Source of the DNA: an uncultured Microcaldota archaeon
Lineage (GTDB): Archaea; Micrarchaeota; Micrarchaeia; Anstonellales; Anstonellaceae
Reading direction: 5' to 3'
DNA: 44,267 nt
NCBI GenBank assembly: GCA_903892905.1
Contig: CAITKI010000113.1
Span: 1 to 44,267, forward strand
How positions within the stretch are numbered: position 1 is the first letter of the stretch; every line of letters begins with the position of its first letter. The notes under the pieces are model-generated. The model worked only from the letters and a program-made list of their open reading frames with translations, was not told the DNA's origin and searched no databases. A program made the position numbers and the translations under genes. This document shows positions 14,328-29,562 of the stretch, piece after piece.

Positions 14328-14390
14328 CGCATAGCATTTTATAATGCCTTAAACATAATCCACGTTAACGCAGGTAATGAATAACGCCCG

Positions 14391-14461
14391 ATGATTTTAT
14401 GGAAACACAGCCGCTTTGGCGGCTTATTTCCAAAAATCCAAACGGAATGATTTTATGGAAA
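14391..14461 (+). repeat. 15-bp direct repeats flanking a hairpin at the DUF655 start
   Basis: ATGATTTTATGGAAA occurs at 14391-14405 and again at 14447-14461. The second copy includes the start codon of the DUF655 gene. Between them is a hairpin AGCCGC/GCGGCT (14409-14424). The arrangement duplicates the translation start and resembles the junction duplications in the large operon. Confidence 0.8.
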
Positions 14462-15018
14462 TGGAACTGTACGCCCGTGTCATTGACTTCATGCCCGAGG
14501 GCAGGCCAACCGACCGCATGCGCGAGCCCATAGCGCAGCTTGTGGGCGAGAAGTTCTTCACCCTGCTTGAGGTTTCCATCATCCGCGGCTCGGCAGTCGC
14601 GCTTGGCCAGCGCCTGTGCATTGGCAAGGAAGGCAGGGTGGAAGTGGAGAAGATAAAAAAGCGCCTCGACTTCCAGGACCTATCCGCAACGTCGAGAAGC
14701 GAGCTTCCCATCGCGGCAAGGAACATAATTTCGGACCGCGAGGCTGATTTCGTTTCATTCTTCAATAAAGCAGGCCCCATCTCCATGAGGCTGCACCAGC
14801 TTGAGCTGCTTTCCGGCATTGGCAAGAAGCACCTTCAGGAGCTTTTGGGCGCGCGCGAGGAAAAGCCTTTCGAGAGCTTCAAGGACATCCAGTCGCGCGT
14901 GTCGCTTCTCCCTGACCCTGCAAACCTCATAGTCTCGCGCGTGAACGAGGAGCTTGGAGGCGTCTCGAAATACTACTTGTTCGTGCGACCCCCGTCCAAG
15001 CACTACGACGAGTTTTGA
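14455..15018 (+). CDS. DUF655 protein (HhH, predicted RNA/DNA binding)
   Basis: This 187-residue protein matches the archaeal DUF655 family. It has the N-terminal ELYARVIDFMPEGRPTDR, an OB-like strand set, and a helix-hairpin-helix region (LELLSGIGKKHLQELLGARE) followed by FESFKDIQSRV and VNEELGG. The family is found next to eL21, rpoF and ksgA in many archaea and is thought to act on ribosomal RNA or DNA; no activity is established. I chose the ATG at 14455; ATG 14461 is also possible. The start codon lies in the second copy of a 15-bp direct repeat, and the ribosome-binding site is weak (GGAATGA). Confidence 0.92.
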   Translation: MEMELYARVIDFMPEGRPTDRMREPIAQLVGEKFFTLLEVSIIRGSAVALGQRLCIGKEGRVEVEKIKKRLDFQDLSATSRSELPIAARNIISDREADFVSFFNKAGPISMRLHQLELLSGIGKKHLQELLGAREEKPFESFKDIQSRVSLLPDPANLIVSRVNEELGGVSKYYLFVRPPSKHYDEF

Positions 15019-21232: not shown

Positions 21233-24200
21233 ATGGAATTTGCAACCGGAAAGAAAAACAGCATCGGAATCCGTTCCCTCCTTTTCCTCAGCCTCGCGCT
21301 TCTCTCGCTCCTCGCCGCGCCGGCGCATGCAGCCGCCGTGACGTGCGGGCAGACCTTTGAGGGCTCAGGCACCTGCACCGGCGGCACCAATTCATTTTCC
21401 TGCTCCACGCTTACCCAAAACGGCATAGGCTGCTGCGAAGAGGCAGGCTGCCAGTGGTCTACTTCCCCGGATCAGGATACCTGCAAGGGCGGCACGCGCA
21501 CCGTGACCTGCTCGGGCTACAATGACAACCCCCAGGGATGCAATGCAATGGGCTGCAAGTTCAACATGAACGCAGGCGCAGGCAGCTGCGGGGGGAGCGT
21601 GGGCGGCAAAGGATATGGGGTGGCATGCAACAGCACAAGCGACTGCGCCAAGTGCCTGGTGTGCGACCCTGTTTCCAGCAAGTGCACGCAGAAGCCAGGC
21701 ATCTGCACCACCATTCCCGCGGAATACGTTCCGCAGGCCCCGCCCCTGGACCAGCCCGGCACAGGCATCACCCCGCAGTCCGCAATCGGGAACCTGGAAA
21801 GCGGCACCACTGGCGGGATGGGCGGCGCAGTGGTGGGAAGCGGGACCAACATCTACAATGCAGGATGGTTCTCGGACTGGAAGGCGATGGGGTTCATTGG
21901 CGTGGCAATCGTGTGCTCCATAATCGCGCTTGCGGCAATGATAGGCATTGCGTTCAACATGCCCGAGGTGCGCGCGTTTGCCAACACCGAGCTTCGGCAG
22001 GCCGTGATTTCGGTGCTGCTCATCGTGTCGCTCATCGCGATGGTCACGTTCTTCAACGAAATCGCGCATGACGCGGTGTATGCCGCAGGCCTGCCGGTTG
22101 CCTGCAACAACGGCGAGCCCTACAACGGCGAGCCCTGCTACGCCACGGCGGCAAAGGCATACCTCGGGCAGATTTATGACACCGGGAACGAGTATGCGCA
22201 GACCGAGCTGCGCGAGTCCATCGTGAACGCCAAGCGCGCGAGCTACGGCTACAACCTCAACCTGAACAAGATATACCTGCTCTTCGCAGGCATGTCCATC
22301 CGCTTCAACGCGGGCGACACGCTGGTCGCGGAGCGGCATGGCGCGCTTTTCACCCAGGCGGCAAAGATGATGTCGAGCATCTACTCGCAGAAGTATTTCA
22401 TCGACGTGATAACATTCGGCGTGGCGCCGCTTTTCATATTGCTTGGCATTGTGCTCCGCACCTTCTTCTTCACGCGCAAGCTCGGCGGGCTTCTCCTGGC
22501 AATGGCAATCTCGCTGTTCATAATCTACCCGCTCACCTATGCGTTTGCCTGGTACACGCTCAATGTCACGGTGTATGGCGAGAGGACGCTTGCTGTCGCC
22601 GACCCCAACTGCCCCGGCGAATGCACAGGCACCTATCCAGTCGCATTCTTCACCTCAAGCACAGGCGAGCTTGTGCAGTTTTCCACCATGCAGTCCATAA
22701 TGCGCGCAGGCATAAACGCGGCCAACTGGCCAAACGGCGGGCCGGGCGGGGCGTTCCCGGGGCTTGTGGCATGCCGCGACCTGGCTGCGATAAACCTGCC
22801 CTCAAGCGTGGCGCCGAATTCCTGCCCTGGCTGCCCTGACTACTGCCGCGACGTGCCGTTCCCCTCAGGCATCCCTGGCTGCAACATAACGCAGTGCTCT
22901 GCATGCAACGCCGGCTGCAAGATAGTGCGCCAGCGCCTCGACTGCCAGACCGACCCGTCCTGCGCAGGCAATTGCCCGCTTTCCTGCCGCACGCGCGTGC
23001 CCCTTGAGAACAAGTGCTTCAGCAACGAGGCCGGCGGCATCATCCCCGCCAACCTCGCAATCAGCTGCTCTGGCTGCGGCAAGTACCCTGCGTGGTGCCG
23101 CTTCCTGAAAAACGAGTCGGGCGTGCTCACGCGCGTCTACAACGACCCGAACAAGGACATGGCGTGCGCAAGGATTGATTCCGATCCCACCTGCCCGCAG
23201 CAGTGCTCCTATGTCACCAGCATGGGCAAGGACCTCACCTGCGACTCGCTTTGCAGCGACCCGATCAGCGACACGGTGTGCCCCAAGGAATGCCGGGTGA
23301 ACGAGCTTCTCAACAGCCCCTCATGGGCCAGCACGTATGACCTCGCCCCGCCCAACCTTACCAGCGCGTGCCGCGAAACGCCGCAGATAGCCGCGGCATG
23401 CTCTGCATGCGCCAACCACCCCGAGTGCCTGGTCACTGCAGGCGCAATCACCGGCTGCTCGAAATACCCAACCATTTCAAACGGCTCGGAGCTCTGCCTG
23501 GACTGCCCTGACTACTGCAGGCGCACCGCAGCCAACTTCAACGTCGTGTTTTCCAGCTTGTCAAACGCGGAGCGCAGCGCCTCCAACTTCCCTGACGTCT
23601 GCGTGCCCACGCAGACCAACAACATAAACTGCAGCGCTTCGGGCAATCCTCCTGCGTGCGCCTTAAACTGCTCGGTCAACGCCTCTCTTAACACGCCGCC
23701 CCAGCTTTGCAGGCCGCTGCAGACGCTTCCTAGTGCGGACAAGACGCTGTGCGGCGCCTGCCCTGATGAAACGCGCTACAGCCTTCGCTTCAACAAGTCT
23801 GGCATATGCCCTGGCGGAGGCTCCAGCACCCAGAACGATAGCGGCAACAATAACATCACGACAGGCGCGCCTGCCGGCGGCTATGACGTCGTCTTCTTCC
23901 CATCTGGCAATAAGATGGCATCTGGCGCGCCTGGCAAGATTGCCGGCACGCTTTGGCTTGCTGGCGGGGCGTCTGTCAACACAATTTCTGCACGCATCGA
24001 CCCTCCCAACCCAAGCAACACCTCCAACCCTGCGGGCTTCTGCAACGGCACAGGGGATGATGGCCAGGGCAGCGGCGGCGCCGCGCCCGCCGATGGCTCG
24101 ATACAATTCCAAGCCCCCACAATCCGGCTTGCAGCCATGAATATCAAGTACGAATACAAGTGGTATCTTGACGGCGTGCAAAACTCAAGCGGGCAAACCG

Positions 24201-25837: not shown

Positions 25838-25952
25838 AGATGAAAAAAACGAAGAGGGCGCCTGCAAGGGGCATGGAACGGTAAGGATGATATGAAGGGT
25901 GTGAAACGAAGAGGGCGCCCGGACAAGGGCATGAAGGGTAAGGATGATATGA
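25833..25952 (+). repeat. Tandem ~57-bp duplication at the paralog 4 start
   Basis: CGAAGAGGGCGCC occurs at 25850-25862 and 25907-25919, and GGTAAGGATGATATGA at 25880-25895 and 25937-25952. The spacing is 57 nt in both cases. The copy boundaries are blurred by a 1-nt indel near TATGAAG. Each copy carries a ribosome-binding-like AAGGATGA. Confidence 0.85.
25834..25884 (+). CDS. Micro-ORF at the paralog 3/4 junction
   Basis: ATG at 25834 overlaps the paralog 3 stop (ATGA) and encodes 16 residues, MKMKKTKRAPARGMER, ending at 25884. It looks like a duplicated copy of the paralog 4 translation start region (MKGVKRRGRPDKG). It may have no product of its own and could couple translation across the junction. 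Confidence 0.35.
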   Translation: MKMKKTKRAPARGMER

Positions 25953-26977
25953 CGGCTGGAAAAACTAAGAAAACGGCATCAATTTTCCGCTTCCTGCTTT
26001 TCGCCAGCATTGCCCTTGCGCTGTCCGGCGGCGCGCTCCACGCTGCAACAGCATCGCCGAACTACACGTACTTCTGGCTCGCGCTTCTCATCCCGACAGC
26101 CATAGTGGCAATCGCCTACATGGCAAGCTATGCTTTCAGCATGCCGCAGCTGCGCGCAATATTGCAGGACGAGCTCCTCCAGATACTTGCAACCGGCGCA
26201 GTGGCGCTCACGCTGGTGGGCACGCAGCTTGTGGTGGACCAGTACGTGGTGGCCACGCTGCAGGCATCCGGCGCAACCGGAAGCGACATCACCGGCGTGA
26301 TGGACGCAGCCTCGCTGAAAATCAACTCGCTTGCCAACAACACCACTGCCGTGCTGCAGAACATGCAGGACGTGAGCATGGCGCTTGGCAAGGAGGCATC
26401 CAAGGGAGTGTTCTGCAACTTCATGGGCGTGGGCTTCTCGCTGTCGAACTGCAGCCCGTTCAACGCCTACCGCGGCAGCCTCACGGCGTCCGCCTTCACC
26501 ACCACGGTGGCTCTTTCCGACACCTATGCGCAGTCCTACATCCTCTCGCTTGCGCGAAGCTACGGCTTCACATTGCTCATCCCGCTTGGCCTGCTGCTGC
26601 GCTGCTTCCGCGCGAGCCGCGGCGCAGGCGGCGCGCTCATCGCAATCGGCTTCGGCTTCTACACGGTCTATCCCGCAGTCATACTTGCCACCGACAACCT
26701 GCTGCACAACGGCACGCCCCCCGGCGCGCCCGCCCTCCCGCTGGTCGGCACCTGCGACCCCCTGGAGACGCAGGTGTCCACATCGCTTTCAGAATTCACG
26801 GACTATGGCGACTCCCTCACGGACTACGCCGCTGCGAAAGCGCTTGCGTATTTCGTGCTGGTGCGCGTGCTGTTCCTGTCCATCCTCAACCTCATAATCA
26901 CGCTGGGGTTCATCCGCGCCTTCGCGCACATGATAGGCAGCGAAATAGACGTGTCCGCGCTGGCAAGGATATCCTAG
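25949..26977 (+). CDS. Polytopic membrane protein, paralog 4
   Basis: This 342-residue protein has a signal peptide (FRFLLFASIALALSGGALHA) and a helix pair with AYMASYAFSMPQLRAI and LQDELLQIL (conserved Glu). The outer loop contains N-glycosylation-type sites and two Cys. The signature is LLIPLGLLLRCFRASRG and AGGALIAIGFGFYTVYP (209-242), and the tail is GFIRAFAHMIGSEIDVSAL. I chose the ATG at 25949 with AAGGATG upstream. The reading frame is open back to an ATG at 25892, which would add 19 basic residues that belong to a duplicated leader, so the longer form is less likely. It lies 7 nt before paralog 5. Confidence 0.82.
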   Translation: MTAGKTKKTASIFRFLLFASIALALSGGALHAATASPNYTYFWLALLIPTAIVAIAYMASYAFSMPQLRAILQDELLQILATGAVALTLVGTQLVVDQYVVATLQASGATGSDITGVMDAASLKINSLANNTTAVLQNMQDVSMALGKEASKGVFCNFMGVGFSLSNCSPFNAYRGSLTASAFTTTVALSDTYAQSYILSLARSYGFTLLIPLGLLLRCFRASRGAGGALIAIGFGFYTVYPAVILATDNLLHNGTPPGAPALPLVGTCDPLETQVSTSLSEFTDYGDSLTDYAAAKALAYFVLVRVLFLSILNLIITLGFIRAFAHMIGSEIDVSALARIS

Positions 26978-26984
26978 GGGAAAA

Positions 26985-28148
26985 ATGCACATGGCAAACG
27001 AAAAATCCCGCATCGCCCTCTTCGTTTTCCTCAGCCTTGCCGCCCTCCTTCCCCAAGCGCTGCACGCGGGCACGCCCTTCACCTGCGGCTCAGCGAATTT
27101 CAACGACACCATTCAGGTCTGCGCGATTGCCGTGCTTGCAATGTTCGCCCTCATCGCGCTTGCCTACATCGGCGGCGAGGCAATGCAAAGCCCCCGCATG
27201 CTTTCCTGGGCAAAGTCCGAGGCGGTGCAGGCGTTCGCCTCGCTCGTGATAGCGTCCATCCTGATTTTCGTGCTGTTCACGATGTGCAGCTTCCAGGTCG
27301 GCGAGCTGAATTCGGTTTTCGGCTCCGCCATGCCGCTGATATACCAGGATGCGCCGGCGCCCTATGCAGGGGGGCAGGACAGCCTGTACACAGGGGCAAT
27401 GCGCTACACCGAAAACCTCGCGGCGCTCGCGCTTGGCAACATCGCATCGCTGCGCTACGACCTGGGCGCATATGAGCTGCGGACGTCTTTCAACACGTTC
27501 GTGTGCAACGGGGTTTGCATCTTCTCGCTTTCAAGCACCAGCGTGTCCTACTTCGGCGGCGAGAGCATGAACCTGGCAATCTCCAACAACCTGCTTGGCA
27601 TCGCCACGGTCTCCTACCTCTCCGTGATTTTCCAGTACTTCACGCTGGTGTACATCTACAACGGGCTCTTCCTCACCTTCCTGCCGCTTGCGATAATCAT
27701 CCGGTCCATCCCATTCTTGCGCCACTTCGGCGGCTCGCTCATCGCGATTTTCGTGGCGCTTTACATAATGTACCCGCTCATGCTGGTGGCCGACGCCTAC
27801 ATCGCGCCAGGGCTGGCCTCGGGCAGCGGCGCGCCCATAACAATGTACAGCCGCGACGGGCTGAACTGCCAGGGCATCGGCGTGTTCTCCACCGCCGCGC
27901 ACACCGGCGCGGTGTGCAGCCAGGGAAGCAGGCCTGAATGGGACATGGAAGGCAAATGGCAGCAGTCGGACATGACCAATCTGTCTCCAAACACGCTTGG
28001 CAGCGCAATCCAGTTCAACGTGCTCATATTCCTCACCGCGATATTCCTGCCTGCGGTCAATTTCATAGCGATTGCGGCATTCGGCCGCGAGCTTTCGCGA
28101 CTGCTCGGCGAGGAAGTGGACATGTCAAGATTGGGGCAGATGATTTGA
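26985..28148 (+). CDS. Polytopic membrane protein, paralog 5
   Basis: This 387-residue protein has a signal peptide (IALFVFLSLAALLPQALHA) and a helix pair with AYIGGEAMQSPRMLSW and AKSEAVQAF. An outer loop contains a CNGVC motif. The signature is LTFLPLAIIIRSIPFLRH and FGGSLIAIFVALYIMYP (about 228-265). The tail is AAFGRELSRLLGEEVDMSRL. The ATG at 26985 has AGGGG upstream; an ATG two codons later is equally possible. The stop at 28148 overlaps a micro-ORF start (TGATG). The layout is shared with the other paralogs, so a common complex is likely; this is inference from synteny. Confidence 0.85.
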   Translation: MHMANEKSRIALFVFLSLAALLPQALHAGTPFTCGSANFNDTIQVCAIAVLAMFALIALAYIGGEAMQSPRMLSWAKSEAVQAFASLVIASILIFVLFTMCSFQVGELNSVFGSAMPLIYQDAPAPYAGGQDSLYTGAMRYTENLAALALGNIASLRYDLGAYELRTSFNTFVCNGVCIFSLSSTSVSYFGGESMNLAISNNLLGIATVSYLSVIFQYFTLVYIYNGLFLTFLPLAIIIRSIPFLRHFGGSLIAIFVALYIMYPLMLVADAYIAPGLASGSGAPITMYSRDGLNCQGIGVFSTAAHTGAVCSQGSRPEWDMEGKWQQSDMTNLSPNTLGSAIQFNVLIFLTAIFLPAVNFIAIAAFGRELSRLLGEEVDMSRLGQMI

Positions 28149-28211
28149 TGGCGCATGCAAGCAGCTGCAATGCGCGCCAATCCTGGCGGAACAGGCAGAT
28201 GATTTGATGGC
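28135..28211 (+). repeat. 18-bp direct repeat at the paralog 5/6 junction
   Basis: GGCAGATGATTTGATGGC occurs identically at 28135-28152 and 28194-28211, offset 59 nt. The first copy includes the paralog 5 stop and the second the paralog 6 start. The DNA between contains two short hairpins (TGCA stems at about 28155-28168, and CGCCA/TGGCG at 28175-28188). Confidence 0.88.
28148..28207 (+). CDS. Micro-ORF bridging paralogs 5 and 6
   Basis: This 19-residue ORF, MAHASSCNARQSWRNRQMI, starts on the last base of the paralog 5 stop and ends on the first base of the paralog 6 ATG (TGATG at both ends). Its last residues QMI copy the end of paralog 5 (GQMI). It could keep ribosomes moving from one gene to the next, or be a remnant of a lost paralog. 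Confidence 0.4.
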   Translation: MAHASSCNARQSWRNRQMI

Positions 28212-29376
28212 AAGCGGAAAAGCAACCTTCGGCAGGAAGCCAAACGGCTACCTTCTCCTGCTCAGCGTATTTGCCATCCTTCTCCTTGTGCAGCTTGCAA
28301 GCAGCACCTCTGCGTTCGAGGATTACCTTACAAAGCAGCAGACCTACTTCCAGAACCGCGTGGGCGGCTGGTGGGGCATTGCCGTCACGGCAATACTGAT
28401 ATGCATCGCGTTCAACACGCTGGTGTACATGCTGGGCTTTGCCCTTGAGAGCCAGGAGGTGAAGAACTACGCAAAGGCCGAGTTCCTCCAGGTGAGCGCA
28501 AGCTCGCTGATGATATTCCTCGCAGTCTCCCTCATCTTCACCGTCACCAGCGGAAGCGCGAACGTATCAGGATTTTATTTCATGGGCGACCTGCTTGGCG
28601 ACGGGGCGTCAAGCATAAGCTGCGCGGCCTCGCAGACCGGCAGATTCTACTTCTGGAAAGGCGAGGGCGACTTCGGCCAGGGCCCCATCGGCGCATTCAA
28701 GTGCAAGCTGCAGGAAAAGATAAACGCGCTTGACAACGCATACGCCGACGTCTCGCATGCCAACCTTGCTGTGGAGCAGTACACCTCCATATGCTATTAT
28801 CTTCTCGGCGTGCCTGTCTATTGCGGGGACTGGGACCTGGGCATGCACAAGCGCGTGGAGGAGGCGCACCTGGTGGCGTCCAAGCTCGTGGACCTGCAGG
28901 TGGCGCTGCATTCCGAGTTCGTGCTTGCCGAGTACGTGCAGCGCAACATGCTGTCCGTGTTCCTGCCCTTCGGCCTGGTGCTGCGCATCTTCCCCCTCAC
29001 CCGCGGGGTGGGCGGGCTTTTCATCGCAATCGGCGTGGGCTTTTTCTTCGTCTGGCCCACATTCTTCCTGCTCACCGACCCGACATTCGTAAAGGTGAAC
29101 AACCCGCCCTCGCAGGCAATGCAGCAGGGCGTGTGCTTCACTGGCTTCCGCGGGAGCGCGGTGCTGCTTGCAGGCGTGGTGCAGACGGGCGGCGCAGGGC
29201 AGCAGTCGGACCTGGCGATACTCCAGGGCAAGGACCTGGTGTACCAGATGACAATCGCCACGCAGTTCTACCCCTTCATCGCGCTCGTGCTCACGCTCAT
29301 ATTCATACGCGCCATGACACCGCTTCTCGGCGGGGACATGGGCGAGCTCATGAAAATGGTATCGAGGCTGGGATGA
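28207..29376 (+). CDS. Polytopic membrane protein, paralog 6
   Basis: This 389-residue protein has an N-terminal hydrophobic segment (LLLLSVFAILLLVQLASS) that may be an uncleaved anchor. The helix pair has VYMLGFALESQEVKNY and AKAEFLQVSAS, and the outer loops carry Cys. The signature is SVFLPFGLVLRIFPLTRG and VGGLFIAIGVGFFFVWP (about 250-284), and the tail is IFIRAMTPLLGGDMGEL. It is the last of the six membrane paralogs. The ATG at 28207 shares a base with the micro-ORF stop. A 21-bp copy of its 3' end is found 68 nt downstream. Confidence 0.85.
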   Translation: MASGKATFGRKPNGYLLLLSVFAILLLVQLASSTSAFEDYLTKQQTYFQNRVGGWWGIAVTAILICIAFNTLVYMLGFALESQEVKNYAKAEFLQVSASSLMIFLAVSLIFTVTSGSANVSGFYFMGDLLGDGASSISCAASQTGRFYFWKGEGDFGQGPIGAFKCKLQEKINALDNAYADVSHANLAVEQYTSICYYLLGVPVYCGDWDLGMHKRVEEAHLVASKLVDLQVALHSEFVLAEYVQRNMLSVFLPFGLVLRIFPLTRGVGGLFIAIGVGFFFVWPTFFLLTDPTFVKVNNPPSQAMQQGVCFTGFRGSAVLLAGVVQTGGAGQQSDLAILQGKDLVYQMTIATQFYPFIALVLTLIFIRAMTPLLGGDMGELMKMVSRLG

Positions 29377-29445
29377 TGATTTTTGCTTCGCAAAAATGCG
29401 CGCCAAAAGCTGCGCTTTTGACGCTGGTATCGAGGCTAGGATGAT
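29357..29445 (+). repeat. 21-bp direct repeat of the paralog 6 3' end
   Basis: TGGTATCGAGGCTRGGATGAT occurs at 29357-29377 (in the end of paralog 6) and at 29425-29445, with one mismatch, offset 68 nt. Between them are two hairpins: ATTTTTGC/GCAAAAAT (29379-29397) and CAAAAGC/GCTTTTG (29404-29420). Confidence 0.88.
29376..29444 (+). CDS. Micro-ORF after paralog 6
   Basis: ATG at 29376 overlaps the paralog 6 stop and encodes 22 residues ending TLVSRLG, a copy of the paralog 6 C-terminus (MVSRLG). It is formed by the hairpin-containing duplication and may have no independent role. Confidence 0.35.
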   Translation: MIFASQKCAPKAALLTLVSRLG

Positions 29446-29479
29446 ATATTATGTATTATGTATGATGCGCTGGAATGGT

Positions 29480-29562
29480 GGATGAAAGCATTTGGTTGAT
29501 GCGATGGAAGGCATGGATGACATGCCGGGATGCCGGATGAGAATATTTGGTTGATTTGATGG
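29480..29562 (+). repeat. Imperfect 28-bp repeat at the 29559 gene start
   Basis: GGATGA, then ATTTGGTTGAT, then GATGG recur at 29480-29507 and 29535-29562, offset 55 nt, matching at about 23 of 28 positions. The second copy contains the start codon of the lipoprotein gene. Confidence 0.6.

What the first reader, a model, noticed from the sequence alone, without database searches (positions are those of the whole stretch)
14391..14461. The same repeat-hairpin-repeat design at the DUF655 start
A 15-bp repeat (ATGATTTTATGGAAA) flanks a hairpin and duplicates the start codon of a housekeeping gene, as at the operon junctions. This suggests a small mobile or slippage-generated element that targets start and stop regions across the genome.
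Basis: seen in the sequence. Interest (0 to 1): 0.5.

Follow-up and report, generated by a model that had tools for sequence, protein, structure and literature searches.

The report
Tiny hairpin insertions duplicating gene starts
In this uncultured Micrarchaeota archaeon, tiny hairpin-forming DNA inserts (about 40-60 bases, sometimes in tandem) have recently landed exactly at the edges of genes, copying the gene's own start and often carrying a reversed copy of it, so the gene survives but gains a fold that could hide its start signal.

Summary
In detail: ATGATTTTATGGAAA occurs at 14391-14405 and 14447-14461 around a hairpin, and the second copy carries the DUF655 start codon. It is one of a set of short insertions. 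Four sister sites in this genome (RIO1 kinase, NYN gene, HTH gene, the 28.2-kb operon junction) are empty in the nearest sequenced relative, which aligns straight through with one copy of the 12-18-nt repeat; outgroups show that at least HTH and NYN are gains. The repeats are therefore target duplications. Core hairpins recur at unlinked genes with compensatory stem changes, so simple slippage fails. Inserts often carry an antisense copy of the target (10 of 16, p<0.05). The pattern is enriched at ORF starts (4.8-fold, p=0.01) and strongly at tRNA ends (6 of 52 edges against about 0.1% in controls), but hardly at ORF stops. Best reading: non-autonomous mobile hairpin micro-elements, akin to mitochondrial GC clusters or REPs but with long duplications and a target-complementary arm. 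The enzyme is unknown; a regulatory effect is plausible but untested.

The parts
14337..14346 (+). TTTTATAATG, box A (TATA)-like promoter element of the DUF655 gene
   Evidence: Sequence. About 59 nt before the OUTER ATG, as in a congener that lacks the insert (57 nt in L105), but about 115 nt before the real ATG.
14391..14405 (+). Outer repeat copy S (ATGATTTTATGGAAA) with decoy ATG at 14399, out of frame with DUF655
14399..14436 (+). Family A hairpin unit (ATGGAAA-CAC-AGCCGC-TTTG-GCGGCT-TA-TTTCCA)
   Evidence: 58.9 bits, E 1.4e-12 with covariance model R1 (it is one of the model's own sequences); related units at RIO1, NYN, L056 and G003 DUF655
14409..14424 (+). Inner stem-loop AGCCGC-TTTG-GCGGCT
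   Evidence: compensatory GCCGC/GCGGC to GGTTGC/GCAACC in the second G003 unit
14427..14438 (+). Antisense arm S' (TTTCCAAAAATC), complementary to both repeat copies with one bulge
   Evidence: weak at this locus alone, p = 0.09
14447..14461 (+). Inner repeat copy S carrying the real DUF655 ATG (14455-14457)
   Evidence: start conserved in congeners
14455..15018 (+). DUF655 gene (PF04919)
28135..28211 (+). Second clean insertion in the window: 18-nt duplication GGCAGATGATTTGATGGC (28135-28152, 28194-28211) around a hairpin at a stop/start overlap
   Evidence: empty in G003 with one 18-nt copy
29346..29562 (+). Related, older duplications with hairpins at the next operon junction (29346/29414, 29458/29513)
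   Evidence: also present in G003 (C10:35338-35670)
25847..25960 (+). 57-nt diverged tandem duplication of a gene start (75% identity), without a strong hairpin
   Evidence: probably an ordinary tandem duplication

Best explanation
The feature is a recent insertion by a dispersed family of non-autonomous hairpin micro-elements in this Micrarchaeota lineage. An element lands at a gene edge (ORF start, or 5' or 3' end of a tRNA gene), the target of about 12-20 nt is duplicated, and the gene is kept whole because the gene-side copy restores its edge. Layout: outer target copy, hairpin core, usually an antisense copy of part of the target, spacer, then the gene with its own target copy. Shown: the layout, insertion at unoccupied sites with target duplication, related cores at unlinked genes, stem conservation by compensatory change. 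Inferred: movement by an unidentified enzyme through a hairpin (probably single-stranded) intermediate, and the antisense arm arising when the hairpin end primes copying of the single-stranded target overhang. Likely consequence, also inferred: the outer start codon is buried in the stem, and the antisense arm can pair instead with the real start, so the leader is potentially a two-state translation switch.
For: Empty sites: in sibling G003 the sequence is continuous across the RIO1, HTH, NYN and 28.2-kb junctions with one repeat copy of 12, 12, 17 and 18 nt; HTH is also continuous in G006, NYN in G004 and G005, and DUF655 leaders of seven congeners lack the element. Same core at unlinked genes: the covariance model finds 6 units at 4 ORF starts in G000, 3 in G003, 1 in G006 and one marginal hit among 59 genomes. 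Compensatory changes: TGGAAA/TTTCCA against TGGCAA/TTGCCA, GCCGC/GCGGC against GGTTGC/GCAACC. Unit number varies (DUF655 1 against 2; NYN 3 against 0). A hairpin element of another family (C) is nested inside a D repeat next to a tRNA in G005, and C ranges from 0 to 26 hits per genome. Target preference. Sense-antisense-sense triples of 9 nt at 13 loci against 0-1 in Markov sequences.
Against: No mobilising enzyme is identified: no Y1 transposase or Cas1 is found in this (88% complete) genome, and the one reverse transcriptase looks like that of a diversity-generating retroelement. The DUF655 insertion has no direct empty site in a close sibling; G003 carries its own two-hairpin version whose repeats match within but not between genomes, which needs independent insertion or concerted evolution. 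Repeat lengths vary (12-20 nt), unusual for one transposase. 6 of 16 inserts show no significant antisense arm, and DUF655 alone only p = 0.09. The several hairpin families may not share one mechanism. G003 empty sites were read as alignment coordinates, not letters.
Confidence: 0.6

Rival explanations
1. Template-switch mutation: a replicating strand folds back on a hairpin, copies the gene start in antisense, then returns and copies the start again, giving sense-antisense-sense without any mobile element.
For: Explains the target duplication, the antisense arm and maintained perfect stems in one step; template switching is documented as creating and maintaining RNA hairpins (PMC8794818). At the HTH locus the insert begins with a near copy of the next coding bases (CAGAACGA against AAGGAACGA), which looks locally templated.
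Against: The same core CCGC-n-GCGGCTTATTNCCA(TTTT) occurs at four unlinked ORF starts with covariance-model scores of 48-60 bits, and tRNA-edge inserts share their own cores; local templating cannot give this.
Confidence: 0.2
2. Selected regulatory leader: a translational switch or autoregulatory RNA duplicated upstream of certain genes and kept for function, with the outer start copy as decoy or anti-sequestor.
For: The antisense arm can pair with either copy; in the NYN and L056 leaders the predicted best fold hides the real start, while at DUF655 the outer start is hidden. Compensatory changes keep the stems.
Against: The same layout sits at tRNA 5' and 3' ends where there is no translation; presence is erratic between sister species; no Rfam family above cut-off; the target genes have no obvious shared function.
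Confidence: 0.1
3. Plain tandem duplication or slippage of the leader followed by divergence.
For: Some neighbours are of this kind (25847-25960; 22107-22136).
Against: Most insert sequence is not a copy of the flank, is shared between unlinked loci, and is absent at the single-copy empty sites.
Confidence: 0.05

Closest known systems
Mitochondrial GC clusters, double-hairpin and repetitive hairpin-forming elements (yeast, fungi, sponges)
   Same: Tiny (about 40 nt) hairpin elements, dispersed and mobile, no known transposase, often intergenic, presence/absence polymorphism (PMC4478555, PMC2800124); a 1981 paper cited there describes palindromes flanking tRNA genes in Neurospora mitochondria.
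   Different: Reported duplications are 2-3 nt (AG, ACT) against 12-20 nt here; in the passages read, no antisense copy of the target is described; this is an archaeal chromosome.
REP sequences / RAYT-mobilised palindromes of bacteria
   Same: 20-40 bp palindromes, extragenic, thought to be mobilised in trans (PMC3733652).
   Different: No GTAG or CGTC tag on family A; sits at ORF starts and tRNA ends rather than mainly downstream of genes; no Y1 transposase found in this genome.
Casposons / Cas1-type integration
   Same: From general knowledge: roughly 14-15 nt target duplications and integration at tRNA 3' ends; a short insert between long duplications resembles a one-spacer CRISPR unit.
   Different: No Cas1 in G000 or G003; the insert is a recurrent hairpin, not a polB-Cas1 element or a random spacer.
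Template-switch mutations
   Same: Produce sense-hairpin-antisense structures and compensatory stem changes (PMC8794818).
   Different: Local events; would not spread one core to unlinked genes.

Membership tests
Non-autonomous mobile hairpin elements (GC-cluster / DHE / RHE type) | Hairpin core repeated at unlinked places | tested here: met
   Family A at 4 ORF starts in G000 plus G003 copies; family C 0-26 hits per genome
Non-autonomous mobile hairpin elements (GC-cluster / DHE / RHE type) | Insertion polymorphism with target-site duplication against an empty site | tested here: met
   Four loci
Non-autonomous mobile hairpin elements (GC-cluster / DHE / RHE type) | Duplication of only 2-3 nt | tested here: not met
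   12-20 nt; so 'works like', not filed as a member
REP / RAYT system | GTAG or CGTC tag next to the palindrome | tested here: not met
   Family A consensus has neither tag beside the stem
REP / RAYT system | RAYT (Y1 transposase) in the genome | tested here: inconclusive
   0 in G000 (88% complete), 2 Y1 genes in G003
Casposon / Cas1 integration | Cas1 integrase present | tested here: not met
   None found in G000 or G003; genomes incomplete
Template-switch mutation | Insert wholly copied from local sequence | tested here: not met
   Core shared between unlinked loci; the antisense part alone would fit
Known RNA family (riboswitch or leader) | Rfam match above gathering score | tested here: not met
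   Only sub-threshold hits, 15.1 bits against 50 and 14.5 against 40
Translational switch | Hairpin or antisense arm changes expression | not testable with these tools
   Only predicted folds

The most novel reading that the evidence does not exclude
A new class of mobile micro-element whose insertion copies the target twice, once as a direct duplication and once in antisense inside the element, so that it homes to gene edges, spares the gene, and installs a start-codon switch or tRNA-end hairpin in one step.
Probability: 0.2. Interest if true: 0.8.

Novelty: new variant of a known kind. Interest (0 to 1): 0.6.

Why it matters
Mobile hairpins this small are best known from mitochondria and as bacterial REPs. 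Here sister archaeal genomes show filled and empty sites at start codons, with related insertions at tRNA ends, so the insertion mechanism of mobile hairpins (long target duplication, antisense target copy) becomes directly testable. If the leaders switch translation, this is a route by which new regulatory RNA structures appear in one event. The preference for breakpoints near position 13 and at 59/60 of tRNAs would point to the cutting activity.

Tried and rejected
Reverse-transcription hypothesis (tRNA 3' copies start at position 59/60, next to the usual m1A58 stop): the only RT found in G000 sits with an Avd-like and a variable-protein-like ORF, a probable diversity-generating retroelement, so it is not support. 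Cas1 and Y1 transposase as drivers: not found in this genome. Archaeal intron (bulge-helix-bulge) at the repeats: the fold shows a 3x2 internal loop, not two 3-nt bulges four pairs apart. Conserved upstream peptide: the outer ATG is out of frame with DUF655 in G000 and the frame differs elsewhere. Virus origin: no exact match of two core patterns in viral contigs.

Full report
WHAT IS THERE. The window is contig C113 of a 1.33-Mb, 154-contig archaeal genome. Its nearest named relative is a Candidatus Micrarchaeota MAG from Lac Pavin (DUF655 95% identical). The reported repeat is exact: ATGATTTTATGGAAA at 14391-14405 and 14447-14461. The gene-side copy holds the ATG (14455) of the DUF655 gene. 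The first copy pairs with TTTCCAAAAATC (14427-14438) outside an inner stem AGCCGC-TTTG-GCGGCT, giving a fold of -24.6 kcal/mol, z -3.0.

INSERTION POINT. In seven congeners whose DUF655 start I could read, the leader has no such element, and in the example I counted (L105) the ATG lies about 57 nt after the TATA-like box. In our genome the OUTER ATG is at that distance (59 nt) and the real one is at 115 nt. So extra DNA lies just downstream of the original start, with a new copy of the start region. Sibling G003 has a different version at the same gene: two hairpins, closed by a 20-nt repeat TGAAGTGGATTTTATGGAAA. Within each genome the outer and inner copies match, but they differ between genomes, so the two insertions are independent or have been homogenised.

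SAME ELEMENT ELSEWHERE. A DNA search of the own genome found the left repeat plus hairpin again before a RIO1 kinase gene, where the repeat is ATGGCAACACAG, that gene's own start. The leader of an NYN-domain gene (L014) carries three tandem units and a fourth locus (L056) one. All fit ATGG-N-A-N-CAC / stem / short loop / stem' / then TTNCCA. The outer stem changes with the gene (TGGAAA/TTTCCA, TGGCAA/TTGCCA) and the inner stem shows compensatory change (GCCGC/GCGGC, GGTTGC/GCAACC). A covariance model built from six units (which match by construction) finds, in 59 genomes, 6 in G000, 3 in G003, 1 in G006 and one marginal hit.

EMPTY SITES. I aligned 13 loci of this genome to G003, 12 loci, partly the same, in a second search, and finally the four joined empty-site sequences to congeners. 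At RIO1, the HTH gene (L023:4633), the junction at window 28135-28211 and the NYN gene, G003 runs straight through with one copy of the repeat; the two halves of our locus overlap in G003 by 12, 12, 18 and 17 nt. HTH is also continuous in G006, NYN in G004 and G005. HTH and NYN are therefore gains in our lineage, with target duplication; for RIO1 and 28.2 kb the direction rests on G003 alone. The search tool gave coordinates, not letters, for these places.

GENOME-WIDE TEST. In 1.036 Mb analysed here, exact repeats of at least 13 nt at spacing 38-95 number 39 (Markov: 2), 25 of them with mostly intergenic DNA between (expected 11.6%; p = 1e-14). A copy of at least 12 nt of the start region lies upstream of 6 of 1023 ORF starts against 6 of 4873 internal control points (4.8-fold, p = 0.01), and beside 6 of 52 tRNA edges (p = 1e-9); ORF stops give 3 of 1034. 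The gene calls come from a simple codon-usage caller, so start positions carry some error. tRNA 5' copies are positions 1-13 at two tRNAs (Cys, Ala) and -5 to 8 at a third (Pro); tRNA 3' copies begin at 59/60 in the six cases inspected.

ANTISENSE ARM. In 10 of 16 insertions the insert contains a run complementary to the duplicated target that is longer than in shuffled inserts (p<0.05; 7-13 nt: 13 at NYN, 10 at HTH, 9 at three tRNA 5' ends); the same test for a sense run gives 1 of 16 (mononucleotide shuffles, not corrected for multiple tests). At DUF655 in this genome it is only suggestive (p = 0.09). Sense-antisense-sense triples with 9-nt words occur at 13 loci against 0-1 in eight Markov sequences. 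Some triples belong to other hairpin arrays.

WIDER HAIRPIN POPULATION. Other hairpin families sit beside tRNAs and between genes: C (CTGATGCATTTTGC-loop-GCAAAATGCACAT), V (CTTTTTCG..CGAAAAAG-GGGCCC-CTTTTTGC..GCAAAAAG), B (AGATTTGYC..GRCAAATAC) and E. C has 11 hits in G000, 21 in G003, 26 in a different genus (G012) and none in many relatives. In G005 a C element sits inside a D repeat just after a tRNA, which is direct evidence of insertion.

MECHANISM. Shown: insertion with target duplication, related cores at unlinked places, preference for ORF starts and tRNA ends. Inferred: a staggered cut leaves a single-stranded target; a hairpin is joined; its folded end copies the overhang (antisense arm); repair adds the second target copy. 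This would explain why the arm matches the local target although the core is shared. The enzyme is unknown: Y1 transposase and Cas1 are not found in G000, and the single reverse transcriptase belongs to what looks like a diversity-generating retroelement. Functional effect: predicted folds put the outer ATG of DUF655 (G000) in a stem, while NYN and L056 favour hiding the real start; a switch is possible but untested, and the same layout at tRNAs argues that it is a by-product.

COMPARISON. Closest are mitochondrial GC clusters and repetitive hairpin elements (PMC4478555, PMC2800124) and bacterial REPs (PMC3733652). The long duplications and the antisense target copy differ, so I do not file it as a member. 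Template switching (PMC8794818) explains the antisense arm but not the shared core.

Noticed in passing
L177:3982-4151, L061:10260-10400, L055:15322-15599, L085:386-648, L089:14325-14560, L007:9066-9150: tRNA genes followed by hairpin arrays of about 40-110 nt that end in a second copy of the tRNA 3' end beginning at T-loop position 59/60.
   Followed up: partly
L198:2061-2180 (G005): Family C hairpin element nested inside a family D repeat (TAGGGGG..CCCCCTGAGGGT|TCA..), directly after tRNA-Arg.
   Followed up: yes
L023:705-752, L182:185-230, L182:405-451, L158:5247-5293, L021:690-737, L164:2222-2267: Family D repeat TAGGGGG(n)CCCCCTGATGGTTCACCCCCA in six places; possibly a regulatory site rather than a mobile hairpin.
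   Followed up: no
L031:5876-8199: Reverse transcriptase (PF00078) beside an Avd-like ORF and a lectin-like variable protein: probable diversity-generating retroelement.
   Followed up: partly
window:12242-13453: TnpB-like gene (OrfB_IS605 and Cas12f1-like TNB domains) shortly upstream of the genes that precede DUF655; no Y1 transposase found in this genome.
   Followed up: partly
L019:1-125: Contig end beside tRNA-Trp is a long palindrome that includes an inverted copy of the tRNA 3' end; real or an assembly artefact.
   Followed up: no
L041, L085, L046, L173 tRNA introns: tRNA introns of different tRNAs share sequence (CCCTTTTT..CGCTCCAGATGGGNACG..AAAAAGCG), suggesting that the introns also spread.
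   Followed up: no
L029:3110-3300: Array of alternating hairpins (AAAAAACAGC/GCTGTTTTTT and GTTGG/CCAAC units) in intergenic DNA.
   Followed up: no
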